NCBI RefSeq assembly: GCF_030252325.1
Contig: NZ_CP126981.1
Coordinates: 2,666,001-2,730,000, forward strand
Direction of reading: 5' to 3'
From: Candidatus Mycobacterium wuenschmannii
GTDB lineage: Bacteria; Actinomycetota; Actinomycetes; Mycobacteriales; Mycobacteriaceae
Length of the DNA: 64,000 bases
Both the position numbers and the translations under genes were made by a program. The notes under the pieces are model-generated. The model searched no databases, was not told the DNA's origin, and saw only the letters and a list, made by a program, of their open reading frames with translations. Positions 59,825-64,000 of this stretch are shown piece by piece (the stretch's first letter is position 1; the number at the start of each line of letters is the position of its first letter).

Positions 59825-60379
59825 GTGACCGGCCCCGTCAACCCCGAGCGCCCAAGCAACCCCGAGACACGCATCATTCGGCGCGCGCCTACCGGGCCGC
59901 TTCCCCAGTTGGACGACGCCCGCACCACGCACATTCCCCGACCTCAGAGTCCGCCTCCGCCACCGCAGCCGCAGTTCGCGCCGACGCCCACGGGTGCGTC
60001 GTTCGGTGAACCCAGCCGGACCACCGCGGTGGCCGCCGCGGCCGTCAGCATCGTCAGCGGCTGGGCCACCTCGGTGGTGGCGACCGACCTGATCGCGGGC
60101 TGGTGGCACTCCGACCAATTGTTCTGCGTCGCAGTGGCTTTCCTGGCGCTGATCTTCGCCGTCGCCACGATCTCCGGCGTGATCCTGTTGCTGCTGCGCC
60201 AGTCGTTGAGCCGCTACCTGATCGTGGCCGGCGCCGTGGTGGCAATCCTGACCTATCTCGGCGTCTTCATTGCCGGGGCGCGGGTGGCCTGGGTGGTGCA
60301 CACCCTGCCGATCCTGCCGATCGCCAGCGCCGTGTTGACGTTGCTGCCGCGCACCCGAGAGTGGCTGCTCGAGGACTAG
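59825..60379 (+). CDS. Small membrane protein downstream of the M23 gene, 184 aa
   Basis: A Pro/Arg-rich cytoplasmic N-terminus (about 1-60, with a run of prolines in SPPPPPQPQF) is followed by three or four TM helices (about 68-90, 100-122, 128-150 and 155-172). I do not know the family. The GTG at 59825 begins 5 bp after the M23 stop, so it is probably co-transcribed with it and may be functionally linked to cell-wall hydrolysis. It converges with uvrD1 (2 bp gap). Confidence 0.65.
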   Translation: MTGPVNPERPSNPETRIIRRAPTGPLPQLDDARTTHIPRPQSPPPPPQPQFAPTPTGASFGEPSRTTAVAAAAVSIVSGWATSVVATDLIAGWWHSDQLFCVAVAFLALIFAVATISGVILLLLRQSLSRYLIVAGAVVAILTYLGVFIAGARVAWVVHTLPILPIASAVLTLLPRTREWLLED

Positions 60380-60381
60380 AT

Positions 60382-62718
60382 CTAAAGCTTCGCCACTGGG
60401 GCGTGGTTGTGCATCAGCTTGACCCGGCCTGAGCTGCCGAAGTCGATCAGCGACATCGCCGACTCGCCCATCCCGGAGACCTCTTCCACCCGGCCGAGGC
60501 CGTACTTGTCGTGGGTGACCCGGTCGCCGGGTTCCAGCACCAGCAGCGGACGCTTGCTGCCGCCTCCGCCGCGTGCGGCCGGCGACGGCCGCGGGGTGCC
60601 GAACCGTCCGGCACCGCTGACCGGCGCGCTGTACGACGGCGTCGGGTCGGTGCGCCGCCAGTCGATCAACTCCTGCGGAATCTCGCGCAGGAAGCGGGAT
60701 TCCGGGTTCAGCATCGGCTGACCCCACGACGAGCGGACCTTTGCGCGGCTGAGGAAGAGCCGCTGCCGCGCCCGCGTGATCCCGACGTAGGCCAGCCGGC
60801 GTTCCTCGGACAGTTCGGTCGGATCGCCCAGCGCCCGCATGTGCGGGAACATGCCGTCCTCCCAGCCGGTGACGAACACCACCGGGAACTCCAGGCCCTT
60901 GGCGGTGTGCAACGTCATCAACGTCACCAAACCGGCTGTCTGCTCCGGAATTTCATCAGTGTCCGCGACCAGCGACACCCGCTCCAGGAACTGCGCCAGC
61001 ACCCCGGTGTCCGGCACGTCCTCGTCGTCCAGGTCGGCGCCCAGAGCTTCGGCATTGGCCAGGTCGATCGCGAATTCGTGTGCGACGCTGACGAGTTCGT
61101 TCAGATTGTCCAGCCGGGCCAGGTCCTGCGGATCCGACGACGACTCCAGCTCGGTGCGATATCCGGTGCGCTCCAGGACCGCCTCGACCAGTTCGCCGAG
61201 ATCGCCCTCCGACGCGGCCAGTTTGACGCGCAGTTCGTCCATCATCTCGACGAAACCCGCAATTGCCTTGGCGGAGCGGGTATTCAGCAGCGGCACCTTG
61301 CCTTCGGCGGCGGCCTCCAAGGCGTCGGCGAAACTGGACCCGGTGTTCTCGGCGTAGACCGCGACGCAAGCCTCCGCGCGGTCGCCGATGCCGCGCCGCG
61401 GCGTGTTCAGGATGCGCCGCAGACTCACCGCGTCGCCGGGGTTGTCCAGCACCCGCAGGTAGGCCACGATGTCGCGGATCTCCCTACGCTCGTAAAAGCG
61501 CACTCCCCCAACGACTTTGTAGGGAATTCCAGCGCGGATGAACACCTCTTCCAGCGATCGCGACGAGTTGTTGGTGCGGTAGAAGACGGCGAAGTCGTTG
61601 TAGGTGATGTCGTCTTTACCGGCGAGCGCGTCGATCTCCTCGGCGATGAACCGGGCCTCGTCGTGCTCGTTGTCGGCGACATAGCCGACGATCAGGTCGC
61701 CCTCGCCGGCGTCGGTCCACAGCCGCTTGTCGCGGCGGGCGGGGTTGCGCGCGATCACCGAGTTGGCCGCCGACAGGATGTTCTGGGTGGAGCGGTAATT
61801 CTGTTCCAGCAGAATCGTTTTCGCGTTCGGATAGTCGCGCTCGAAGTCCTCGATGTTGCGGATCGTCGCTCCGCGGAACGCGTAGATCGACTGGTCGGCG
61901 TCACCGACCACGCACAACTCGCCGGGCGGAGTGCCGTCTTCGCCGTCCTCGAGTTCGGGGCCGACGAGTTCGCGGACCAACACGTACTGCGCGTGGTTGG
62001 TGTCCTGGTACTCGTCGACCAGGATGTGGCGGAAGCGCCGACGGTAATGGTCGGCGATCTGCGGGAAGGCCTGCAGCACCGCGACCGTCTCGCCGATCAG
62101 GTCGTCGAAGTCGAGGGCGTTGGCCACCCGCAGCCGCTGCTGATATTCGGAGTAGACCGCGGCGACCGTGCGGGCCAGATCGTCGGACAGGTCGTCGTCG
62201 GACAGGTTGGCGATGGCCTGCTGCGGGTCGATGAGTTCGTTCTTCAGGTTGGAGATGTTGTTGGCCAGCAGTCGCGGCGAGTACCGCTTGAGGTCGAGGC
62301 CCATGTCCTTGCCGATCATCTGCAGCAGCCGGCGCGAGTCGTCGGCGTCGTAGATCGAGAAGTTGGAGTTGAGGCCGGAGATCAGCGAGGCCTGGTTGCG
62401 CAGAATCCGCACGCAGGTCGAGTGGAACGTCGACACCCACATCGAGCGCGCCCGCGGACCGACCAGCGCGGCGACCCGCTCGCGCATCTCCGCGGCGGCC
62501 TTGTTGGTGAAGGTGATCGCGAGGACCTGGCCGGGTGAGACGTCGCGGGCGGCCAGCAGGTAGGCGATCCGGCGGGTCAGCACGGCCGTCTTGCCGGACC
62601 CGGCACCGGCGACGATCAGCAGCGGCGAGCCCTCGTGCAGCACCGCCTGACGCTGCTGGGGATTCAGTCCGTCGAGAAGCTGTTCGGTTTCGGATTCGGT
62701 CACGTGCTGCAGACTCAT
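60382..62718 (-). CDS. uvrD1: ATP-dependent DNA helicase UvrD1 (PcrA), 778 aa
   Basis: A superfamily 1A helicase with motif I VAGAGSGKT (about 37-45), motif Ia, motif II VDEYQDTN, motif III GDADQSIYAFRGA, motif IV LEQNYRST, motif V LMTLHTAKGLEFP and motif VI VGITRARQRLFLSRA. The C-terminal about 100 residues (FGTPRPSPAARGGGG to YGLGRVEEVSGMGESAMSLIDFGSSGRVKL) form the Tudor-like domain used for contacts with Ku or RNA polymerase. It acts in nucleotide-excision repair and conflict resolution. The ATG at 62718 has TAGGTT upstream with 9 nt between, nearly leaderless. Confidence 0.96.
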   Translation of the reverse strand: MSLQHVTESETEQLLDGLNPQQRQAVLHEGSPLLIVAGAGSGKTAVLTRRIAYLLAARDVSPGQVLAITFTNKAAAEMRERVAALVGPRARSMWVSTFHSTCVRILRNQASLISGLNSNFSIYDADDSRRLLQMIGKDMGLDLKRYSPRLLANNISNLKNELIDPQQAIANLSDDDLSDDLARTVAAVYSEYQQRLRVANALDFDDLIGETVAVLQAFPQIADHYRRRFRHILVDEYQDTNHAQYVLVRELVGPELEDGEDGTPPGELCVVGDADQSIYAFRGATIRNIEDFERDYPNAKTILLEQNYRSTQNILSAANSVIARNPARRDKRLWTDAGEGDLIVGYVADNEHDEARFIAEEIDALAGKDDITYNDFAVFYRTNNSSRSLEEVFIRAGIPYKVVGGVRFYERREIRDIVAYLRVLDNPGDAVSLRRILNTPRRGIGDRAEACVAVYAENTGSSFADALEAAAEGKVPLLNTRSAKAIAGFVEMMDELRVKLAASEGDLGELVEAVLERTGYRTELESSSDPQDLARLDNLNELVSVAHEFAIDLANAEALGADLDDEDVPDTGVLAQFLERVSLVADTDEIPEQTAGLVTLMTLHTAKGLEFPVVFVTGWEDGMFPHMRALGDPTELSEERRLAYVGITRARQRLFLSRAKVRSSWGQPMLNPESRFLREIPQELIDWRRTDPTPSYSAPVSGAGRFGTPRPSPAARGGGGSKRPLLVLEPGDRVTHDKYGLGRVEEVSGMGESAMSLIDFGSSGRVKLMHNHAPVAKL

Positions 62719-62788
62719 AACCCGTCCAACCTACCGCCGTTCGCCGACACCTTTGCGCTGGAACGCCTGCAAGTGGCAGACTCGATTC

Positions 62789-62848
62789 GTGCTCAACGCG
62801 CAGTGGCGATTTTTCTACGGGTACCGGCCAGCGGTGCCCGTGGTTTAG
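62789..62848 (+). CDS. Aromatic leader peptide of the chorismate mutase gene, 19 aa
   Basis: GTG 62789 to TAG 62848 encodes MLNAQWRFFYGYRPAVPVV. Six of the first twelve residues include Trp6, Phe8, Phe9, Tyr10 and Tyr12, and the aromatic codons form a cluster just before the hairpins. TTGCGC (62753-62758), 18 bp and CAGACT (62777-62782) lie 6 nt before the GTG, so the mRNA would start at it (leaderless). It sits 69 nt ahead of the chorismate mutase gene, the branch point to Phe and Tyr, and next to a stem-loop. This is the structure of a transcription-attenuation leader peptide. Conservation has not been checked. Confidence 0.6.
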   Translation: MLNAQWRFFYGYRPAVPVV

Positions 62849-62858
62849 CTGCTTCCCA

Positions 62859-62891
62859 GAGCCCCGCGGTCCGCTTCCGGATCCGGGGCTC
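62859..62891 (+). terminator. Candidate attenuator hairpin before chorismate mutase
   Basis: GAGCCCCG (62859-62866) pairs perfectly with CGGGGCTC (62884-62891), followed by GTCTCTTGTGTG. An upstream competing hairpin overlaps the leader peptide: CGGGTACC (62818-62825) with GGTGCCCG (62833-62840), one G-U pair. A third pairing, 62823-62834 (ACCGG...AGCGG) with 62871-62880 (CCGCT...CCGG), could serve as an antiterminator. A ribosome stalled at the Trp/Phe/Tyr codons would influence which forms. The absence of a long T-run makes termination efficiency uncertain. Confidence 0.5.
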
Positions 62892-62917
62892 GTCTCTTGT
62901 GTGAGGCCCGAAACCGG

Positions 62918-63220
62918 ATGACACCGCAGAACCCACACGAGAATTCGGAGTTACCAATGACAATCGACACCGAACACCCCATCGATATCGCCGCCCTTCG
63001 GGTGGAGATCGACCGGCTCGACGCCGAGATTCTGGCCGCGGTCAAACGCCGCGCCGAGGTGTCCAGGGAAATCGGCAAGGCACGGATGGCGTCCGGCGGC
63101 ACCCGGCTGGTGCACAGCCGCGAGATGCAGGTCATCGAGCGTTACAGCGAACTCGGGCCCGAGGGCAAAGACCTGGCGATGCTGCTGCTGCGGCTCGGCC
63201 GCGGCCGGCTCGGTCACTAG
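62918..63220 (+). CDS. Intracellular chorismate mutase AroQ-delta (Rv0948c-like), 100 aa
   Basis: Converts chorismate to prephenate for Phe and Tyr. All-helical AroQ fold: IAALRVEIDRLDAEILAAVKRRAEVSREIGKARMASGGTRLVHSREMQVIERY, with catalytic Arg, Lys and Glu in those helices, and the C-terminal LGRGRLGH conserved in mycobacteria, where it mediates activation by the DAHP synthase AroG. I chose the ATG at 62918, which aligns with the M. tuberculosis start region; a GTG at 62897 is also in frame. It is preceded by a predicted aromatic leader peptide and hairpin. pgi follows after 56 bp. Confidence 0.93.
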   Translation: MTPQNPHENSELPMTIDTEHPIDIAALRVEIDRLDAEILAAVKRRAEVSREIGKARMASGGTRLVHSREMQVIERYSELGPEGKDLAMLLLRLGRGRLGH

Positions 63221-63276
63221 CCCGCTGTTCACCTGCGCGTCAGCAATGCTCCCATCGACCTGACTAGGGTCGAGGG

Positions 63277-64000
63277 ATGACTGCGGTTGACCAGATCCCC
63301 GACATCTCAGCGACCCCGGAGTGGAGCGCGCTGCAGCAGCACCACCGGCAGATCGGTGACACCCACCTGCGGGAGTTTTTCGACGCCGACCCCGACCGCG
63401 GCCGCGAATTCACCCTGACCGTCGGCGACCTGTACATCGACTACAGCAAGCACCGCATCAACCGCGACACGCTGCGACTGCTGATCGACCTGGCCCACGC
63501 GGCCCAGCTCGAGCGGCATCGCGATGCGATGTTCGAGGGGACGCACATCAACGTGTCCGAGGACCGCGCCGTGCTGCACACCGCGCTGCGGCTGCCGCGC
63601 GACGCATCGCTGACGGTCGACGGGCAGGATGTGGTCGCCGACGTCCACGAAGTCCTCGACAGGATGGGCGATTTCACCGACCGGCTGCGCAGTGGCGACT
63701 GGACCGGCGCCACCGGCAAGCGGATCACCACCGTCGTCAACATCGGGATCGGCGGCTCTGATCTCGGCCCGGTGATGGTCTATCAGGCGCTGCGGCACTA
63801 CGCCGACGCCGGCGTCTCGGCGCGCTTCGTGTCCAACGTCGACCCGGCCGACCTGATCGCGAAGCTCGCCGACTTGGACCCGGCCACAACGCTTTTCATC
63901 ATCGCCTCCAAGACCTTCACGACGCTCGAGACGCTGACCAACGCTACGGCCGCGCGGCGTTGGCTGACCGACGCGCTCGGCGACGACGCGGTGGCCAAGC
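63277..64000 (+). CDS. pgi: Glucose-6-phosphate isomerase, N-terminal part (gene runs off the right edge)
   Basis: The visible 241 residues start [20 protein letters not shown] and contain [36 protein letters not shown] and the sugar-phosphate-binding signature [20 protein letters not shown], followed by [33 protein letters not shown]. All are standard Pgi motifs. It interconverts glucose-6-phosphate and fructose-6-phosphate. TAGGGT (63265-63270) is 6 nt before the ATG, so a leaderless start is possible, although GAGGG could also act as a ribosome binding site. Confidence 0.95.

What the first reader, a model, noticed from the sequence alone, without database searches (positions are those of the whole stretch)
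62789..62917. Predicted aromatic attenuator: leaderless W/FFY/Y leader peptide plus hairpins in front of chorismate mutase
A complete 19-codon frame encodes MLNAQWRFFYGYRPAVPVV, dense in exactly the end products of the pathway controlled by chorismate mutase. It has a -10-like box 6 nt before its GTG, a hairpin overlapping its 3' half (62818-62840), and a GC-rich terminator-like stem (62859-62891) before the gene. Attenuation by leader peptides is well known for trp operons and for aromatic genes of Corynebacterium; I do not know of it being described for mycobacterial AroQ-delta chorismate mutase.
Basis: partly seen in the sequence, partly recalled or inferred. Interest (0 to 1): 0.8.

Follow-up and report, generated by a model that had tools for sequence, protein, structure and literature searches.

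The report
Phe/Tyr attenuator before chorismate mutase
In front of the gene that commits chorismate to phenylalanine and tyrosine, this mycobacterium carries a tiny Phe/Tyr-rich reading frame and RNA hairpins that look like an amino-acid-sensing switch, and switches of the same plan stand before that gene in other actinomycetes.

Summary
Window 62789-62848 encodes a leader peptide (MLNAQWRFFYGYRPAVPVV), probably leaderless, before an intracellular chorismate mutase (CM, 62957-63220; closest solved structure Rv0948c). Three alternative stems follow the trp/phe attenuator plan: 1:2 over the FFYGYR..AVPVV codons, antiterminator 2:3, and terminator 3:4 (62859-62891) with a U-rich tail. A covariance model matches 219 of 248 genus genomes. 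In 63 aligned elements the stems are 92-96% paired, with two-sided changes in each. Phe codon 1 is Phe in 76 of 76 genus elements; Trp is not conserved, so the signal is Phe/Tyr, the products of the CM branch. Related leaders precede CM in some other genera, in Pseudonocardiales MAGs and in more distant families, one probably Streptomyces (25 of 40 distant regions against 1.2 in shuffles). None of eleven genomes of four other family genera has a leader of this type. A 2005 survey of Actinobacteria reported no RNA elements before Phe/Tyr operons. Best reading: a classical ribosome-mediated transcription attenuator, a new member of a known kind, apparently undescribed. I saw no expression data.

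The parts
62753..62758 (+). putative -35 element TTGCGC (18-nt spacer to the -10)
   Evidence: a TTGCG/TTGAC/TTGCA/TTGCC motif within 25 nt upstream of the -10 in 58 of 75 genus elements
62777..62782 (+). putative -10 element CAGACT, 6 nt before the GTG (leaderless promoter)
   Evidence: [CT]A[CG][AT][CT]T 5-8 nt before an in-frame ATG/GTG in 75 of 76 genus elements, CACACT in 57 and CAGACT in 10
62789..62848 (+). leader peptide ORF MLNAQWRFFYGYRPAVPVV*; GTG start = presumed transcription start
62810..62818 (+). candidate control codons Phe-Phe-Tyr (Phe 62810, Phe 62813, Tyr 62816); second Tyr 62822-62824
   Evidence: Phe1 76 of 76, Phe2 62, Tyr1 63, Tyr2 70 of 76; role as control codons is inference
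62815..62843 (+). hairpin 1:2 (arms 62815-62826 and 62832-62843)
   Evidence: fold -22.9 kcal/mol z -4.3; 96.0% of cells paired in 63 elements, 5 pairs with two-sided changes
62831..62874 (+). antiterminator 2:3 (62831-62834 with 62871-62874; 62838-62843 with 62864-62869)
   Evidence: MFE of window 62831-62877; 91.8% of cells paired, 2 pairs with two-sided changes; at least half its pairs in the MFE of the fragment in only 22 of 63 elements
62859..62891 (+). intrinsic terminator stem 3:4 (62859-62866 with 62884-62891; 62868-62873 with 62878-62883)
   Evidence: -27.2 kcal/mol z -4.0; 93.1% of cells paired, 4 pairs with two-sided changes
62892..62901 (+). U-rich tail (5 T in 10 nt here)
   Evidence: mean 5.2 T in the next 10 nt against 1.9 expected, in the 72 of 76 genus elements whose 3' arm was found by a motif
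62947..62950 (+). Shine-Dalgarno-like GGAG of the chorismate mutase gene
   Evidence: by eye
62957..63220 (+). intracellular (AroQ-delta) chorismate mutase, 87 aa, the presumed regulated gene
   Evidence: ORF region; matches M. tuberculosis Rv0948c intracellular chorismate mutase, PDB 2qbv, E 1.2e-38, which PMC4281200 assigns to AroQ-delta; homologues in 245 of 248 genus genomes

Best explanation
The region is a ribosome-mediated transcription attenuator of the chorismate mutase gene that senses charged tRNA-Phe and tRNA-Tyr. Transcription starts at the GTG and ribosomes load on the leaderless end (inferred from the promoter). With enough Phe and Tyr the ribosome runs to the UAG at 62846 and covers arm 2, stem 3:4 forms as a terminator, and CM is not made (inferred). 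When Phe or Tyr is short the ribosome stalls at the Phe-Phe-Tyr codons at 62810-62818 and covers arm 1; arm 2 is then free to pair with arm 3, the terminator is pre-empted and CM is transcribed (inferred). Shown: the frame, the codons, three mutually exclusive stems, the U-rich tail, their conservation and covariation, and a fixed position before CM.
For: Frame, promoter motif and stems in the window. Model match in 219 of 248 genus genomes; no second copy in the own genome, next match E 0.07. All three stems are conserved with two-sided changes, while slid controls pair 22-59%. Phe codon 1 is Phe in 76 of 76 (71 TTT, 5 TTC) and lies outside the stems, so pairing does not explain it; Phe2 varies TTC 46 / TTT 16. 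U-rich tail 5.2 against 1.9 T per 10 nt. In five Pseudonocardiales/actinobacterial MAGs the hairpin stays but the frame after FFYGYR is shifted, so the AVPVV tail reflects the hairpin rather than a functional peptide. Related leaders before CM in distant families: 25 of 40 against 1.2 shuffled, in family f21 with a CATACT/CATAAT box 6-7 nt before the start codon, hairpin, long GC-rich stem and an arm 2-arm 3 alternative. Two genomes without the element (L017, L135) have the same kind of -10 box directly before the in-frame CM start codon.
Against: No transcript, ribosome-profiling or reporter data were seen. FFY is intact in only 55 of 76 genus elements. At least half of the antiterminator pairs are in the MFE of the arm 2-arm 3 fragment in only 22 of 63 elements, mean pair probability 0.5. 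The shuffle control for two-sided pairs is not passed by 3:4 (104 of 500 shuffles reach it) and only weakly by 2:3 (38 of 500). Three elements have lost the terminator while keeping the leader hairpin. 29 of 248 genus genomes give no model match at E<=1e-5; 19 of the 29 searched again with laxer filters gave at best E 1.8e-5. Distant family f20 has no aromatic leader, 0 of 9. For the C. glutamicum aroR leader, Tyr availability is reported not to matter (PMC11802643), so the Tyr part here could be silent.
Confidence: 0.86

Rival explanations
1. The leader works mainly at translation or through Rho: ribosome position on the uORF exposes or hides the CM ribosome-binding site or a Rho loading site, and stem 3:4 is not an efficient terminator.
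For: Seliverstov 2005 (passages) notes few rho-independent terminators in mycobacteria and proposes Rho for the cys leaders; the U tail here is only moderately U-rich (5 of 10); three genomes keep the leader hairpin without the terminator.
Against: Stem 3:4 is 93.1% paired with two-sided changes and is followed by a U-rich tail; family f21 has a long GC-rich stem, with a short T-run a few bases later in many of the 18 aligned elements.
Confidence: 0.08
2. The short ORF is a ribosome-loading uORF or a small functional peptide; the aromatic codons are incidental.
For: Leaderless uORFs are common in mycobacteria (PMC4633059 section 12); the C-terminal half is strongly conserved.
Against: The C-terminal half pairs with the FYGYR codons and is out of frame in the five MAGs while the hairpin stays; the N-terminal half varies in length and sequence; aromatic clusters recur with different peptides in other families.
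Confidence: 0.04
3. Chance short ORF and GC-rich hairpins.
For: GC-rich genomes give many hairpins; the model also scores unrelated stems weakly (L172-L174; G178 and G049 far from their CM).
Against: Conservation, covariation and shuffles.
Confidence: 0.01

Closest known systems
E. coli pheL-pheA attenuator (described in PMC11802643, passage)
   Same: Leader peptide whose Phe codons report tRNA-Phe charging, attenuation, controls a chorismate mutase gene
   Different: The regulated gene there is the bifunctional CM-prephenate dehydratase; here it is a monofunctional CM, Tyr codons are included and the leader is probably leaderless; no sequence kinship was tested
C. glutamicum aroR-aroF attenuator (Neshat 2014, seen only as described in PMC11802643; that its leader is leaderless is recalled)
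   Same: Phe-Tyr-Phe leader, aromatic pathway, actinobacterium
   Different: Controls DAHP synthase and responds to Phe, not Tyr. 11 genomes of genera g3, g4, g5 and g8 (g3 probably Corynebacterium) have no leader of the present type before CM; one of them (L225) has an unrelated-looking aromatic-rich ORF
M. tuberculosis ilvB1 attenuator (PMC13236596, passages and discussion)
   Same: uORF with end-product codons, terminator and antiterminator; replacing the codons abolished the response there
   Different: Branched-chain amino acids and another operon
Poly-Cys leaderless uORFs of mycobacteria (Canestrari 2020, not held, seen as cited in PMC13236596; candidates in PMC4633059)
   Same: leaderless short ORF acting as attenuator in mycobacteria
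   Different: Said to act on translation; no conserved terminator hairpin found for the cys leaders (PMC1262725)

Membership tests
Classical ribosome-mediated transcription attenuator (trpL/pheL type) | short leader ORF with codons for the end product of the regulated gene | tested here: met
   FF-Y-Y before CM; Phe1 76 of 76, at least 3 of 4 aromatic positions in 70 of 76
Classical ribosome-mediated transcription attenuator (trpL/pheL type) | three mutually exclusive stems 1:2, 2:3, 3:4 | tested here: met
   by sequence and covariation; caveat: 2:3 is in the fragment's MFE in only 22 of 63
Classical ribosome-mediated transcription attenuator (trpL/pheL type) | stem 3:4 is an intrinsic terminator with a U-run before the structural gene | tested here: met
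   by sequence only; termination itself not measured; missing in L050, L054, L056
Classical ribosome-mediated transcription attenuator (trpL/pheL type) | control codons at arm 1, stop codon placed so that the ribosome covers arm 2 | tested here: met
   coordinates: codons 62810-62818, arm 1 62815-62826, stop 62846 next to the end of arm 2 at 62843; ribosome footprint size recalled
Classical ribosome-mediated transcription attenuator (trpL/pheL type) | expression rises when the amino acid is limiting, through the leader codons | not testable with these tools
   no expression data
Leaderless attenuators of actinobacteria | transcription starts at the leader start codon | tested here: inconclusive
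   -10 hexamer 5-8 nt before the start codon in 75 of 76; TSS not mapped
Described Rfam RNA families | covariance-model match | tested here: not met
   no match up to E 1 in window 60000-64000

The most novel reading that the evidence does not exclude
An ancestral, leaderless Phe/Tyr attenuator of AroQ-delta chorismate mutase runs through much of the class Actinomycetes, as the transcriptional counterpart of the allosteric Phe/Tyr control of the CM-DAHP synthase complex, and was lost in Corynebacterium-like genera.
Probability: 0.6. Interest if true: 0.68.

Novelty: new member of a known kind. Interest (0 to 1): 0.62.

Why it matters
Chorismate mutase is the branch point to Phe and Tyr. In M. 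tuberculosis its control is described at the protein level, through the complex with DAHP synthase and feedback by Phe and Tyr (PMC4281200, abstract and passages). A conserved attenuator would add a transcriptional layer tied to tRNA-Phe/Tyr charging. It fills a gap that a 2005 comparative survey stated in so many words, and makes control of the Phe/Tyr branch directly testable with existing TSS, 3'-end and Ribo-seq data.

Tried and rejected
Trp as a signal: rejected, a W in 22 of 75 peptides only. Functional C-terminal peptide: rejected, frame shifted in five MAGs. Aromatic leaders before other aromatic genes of the own genome: none by the loose criterion in about 600 nt upstream of the matched start of DAHP synthase (L234) or prephenate dehydratase (L235); trpE, tyrA and others were not examined. 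Rfam: no match. Weak model matches L172, L173 and L174 were read and set aside as stems without CM; the other weak matches were not read, except that G453 and G585 lie next to CM by their coordinates. First passes at the genus set misread minus-strand loci, which are not oriented, and were redone. One search left out one genus genome (L088, no element) by my index cut; searches counted one genome twice (L132 = L082). L052 was fetched by mistake and not used. The first attempt at the f21 references failed and was redone. D'Halluin 2023 and Canestrari 2020 are not held, so their text and tables were not checked. Structure prediction, protein-homology searches and phage/plasmid collections were not used, as the question is about RNA before a well-known enzyme.

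Full report
What is there. Window 62789-62848 (+) encodes MLNAQWRFFYGYRPAVPVV from a GTG, in the 238-nt gap between a divergent ORF of 778 aa (60382-62718, minus; a UvrD-type helicase by recall) and an 87-aa chorismate mutase (62957-63220) whose closest solved structure is M. tuberculosis Rv0948c, E 1.2e-38. CAGACT (62777-62782) stands 6 nt before the GTG and TTGCGC (62753-62758) 18 nt further up. Two hairpins fold strongly: 62815-62826 with 62832-62843 (-22.9 kcal/mol, z -4.3) and 62859-62891 (-27.2, z -4.0); 62789-62900 as a whole folds at -61.2, z -5.8. Folded without the terminator's 3' arm, arm 2 instead pairs with arm 3 (62831-62834 with 62871-62874, 62838-62843 with 62864-62869), an antiterminator. 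No Rfam family matches.

Conservation in the genus. The CM protein is found in 245 of 248 genus genomes. I read the upstream regions of 82 of them, mostly the nearest CM hits and so not a random sample: 80 (76 with the hairpin core), one more without it (L088) and one more with it (L222), that is 77 of 82. An evenly drawn check is the covariance model R1, built from 63 elements: 219 of 248 genus genomes match at E<=1e-5. Some of the 248 gave the model its sequences and match by construction, and the three terminator-less genomes and one genome with an interrupted element (G083) are among the 219. Of the 29 without a match, three (G003, G070, G126) have no CM match either. I searched 19 of the 29 again with laxer filters; 7 gave only weak matches (best E 1.8e-5), of which those in G178 and G049 lie far from their CM, and 12 gave none at E<=0.01.

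Codons. Over the 76 genus elements, Phe1 is Phe in 76 (71 TTT, 5 TTC), Phe2 in 62, Tyr1 in 63, Tyr2 in 70; FFY is intact in 55, and at least three of the four aromatic positions are kept in 70. A Trp occurs in 22 of 75 peptides, so the W of this window is incidental. A -10 hexamer 5-8 nt before an in-frame ATG/GTG was found in 75 of 76.

Structure. The alignment A1 holds 63 elements: 67 non-redundant ones, less L024 with a duplicated terminator and L050, L054, L056 that lost it. Stem 1:2 is paired in 96.0% of cells with 5 pairs changed on both sides, 3:4 in 93.1% with 4, 2:3 in 91.8% with 2. Slid controls pair 36-44%, 22-59% and 35-53%. No shuffle reaches the paired percentage or the covariation score for any of the three, but the tool warns that related sequences can do that without structure. 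On the stricter count of pairs with two-sided changes, 1, 104 and 38 of 500 shuffles reach the observed value for 1:2, 3:4 and 2:3. In the 72 of 76 genus elements whose 3' arm was found by a motif, the 10 nt after it hold 5.2 T on average against 1.9 expected. By MFE, at least 70% of the pairs appear in 61 of 63 for 1:2 and 50 of 63 for 3:4 when each is folded in its own stretch; for 2:3 at least half appear in only 22 of 63. The antiterminator is thus supported by conservation more than by predicted stability.

Natural variants. L017 and L135 have a CACACT box directly before the in-frame CM start codon, with leader and terminator gone. L050, L054 and L056 keep the leader hairpin without the terminator. 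Some elements read RFICGC or RFPYGY in place of RFFYGY. In five MAG records, four labelled Pseudonocardiales or Pseudonocardiaceae and one Actinobacteria, the leader reads FFYGYR and then leaves the frame, while the hairpin, a terminator-like stem and, by eye, a CCGUG/CACGG arm-2/arm-3 match stay. The AVPVV tail of the mycobacterial peptide is therefore best explained by the hairpin.

Beyond the genus. Within the family, 7 of 47 upstream regions of other genera carry the core (L094, L104, L106, L110, L116, L127, L130). Of 11 genomes from genera g3, g4, g5 and g8 none has a leader of this type; one (L225) meets the loose criterion with an unrelated-looking ORF, and several show a -10 box directly before the CM start. 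In an evenly drawn class sample of 394 genomes the model finds elements before CM in f3 and f38 as well. Among 296 class genomes, 91 have this CM at E<=0.001. Of 40 distant upstream regions chosen from that list, 25 hold an aromatic-rich short ORF (f21 16 of 20, f16 3 of 3, f34 2 of 2, f2 2 of 2, f3 1 of 1, f38 1 of 1, f20 0 of 9, f24 0 of 1, f14 0 of 1), against a shuffled mean of 1.2, maximum 5. By eye four of the 15 misses (L186, L196, L201, L204) carry a sparser leader with a terminator-like stem. The f21 leaders (type TFLFTYGNRPAGCHGRAA) mostly start 6-7 nt after CATACT or CATAAT and form a hairpin over the Tyr-Gly codons, a long GC-rich stem, often with a short T-run after it, and, in the three folded, an arm 2-arm 3 alternative. 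Whether the distant leaders descend from one ancestor was not tested by a tree.

Literature. Seliverstov 2005 (PMC1262725, passages) searched Actinobacteria including M. tuberculosis and M. smegmatis and reports no conserved RNA regulatory structures upstream of phenylalanine or tyrosine operons. The S. lividans reannotation (PMC8079986, passages including Table 4) lists eight leader peptides, none for CM. Shell 2015 (PMC4633059, section 12 and passages), the M. abscessus Ribo-seq paper (PMC4974804, passages), Ju 2024 (PMC10937400, passages), PMC11133741 (passages) and PMC13236596 (passages and discussion) mention no CM leader in what I saw. The search listings show none by title or start of abstract. 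Supplementary tables and most subscription papers were not seen, so a table entry elsewhere is possible. For M. tuberculosis, CM is described as controlled by Phe and Tyr through its complex with DAHP synthase (PMC4281200, abstract and passages).

Verdict. A classical, probably leaderless, Phe/Tyr-specific transcription attenuator of chorismate mutase is by far the best reading (0.86). The kind is known; this member, its placement before an AroQ-delta CM and its breadth across actinomycetes appear not to have been described. Steps not shown: the transcription start, translation of the leader, termination and the response to starvation.

Noticed in passing
L226, L229 and others: In Corynebacterium-like genera the chorismate mutase gene has no leader of this type, and a GGCATAAT-like -10 box stands directly before its start codon, suggesting a leaderless, unattenuated mRNA.
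   Followed up: partly
L050, L054, L056: Three genomes keep the leader hairpin (L050 with intact FFYGYR) but have lost the terminator, a natural variant that may be constitutive.
   Followed up: partly
L048 and L236 (genome G083): The model match lies about 1.4 kb before CM while an unrelated coding end, transposase-like by recall, stands directly before CM: the element looks interrupted by an insertion.
   Followed up: no
window 62892-62950: CUUGUGUG after the terminator can pair with CACACGAG just before the CM ribosome-binding site, and similar matches seem to recur in relatives; seen by eye only, not counted.
   Followed up: no
window 62846-62852: UAGCUGC, the leader stop codon and the bases after it, is strongly conserved in the genus without a settled role; it may extend hairpin 1:2.
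   Followed up: no
L068: The element with RFFYGYGLTVPVV is kept in a genome of 3,268,203 bases, which equals the length that I recall for M. leprae.
   Followed up: no
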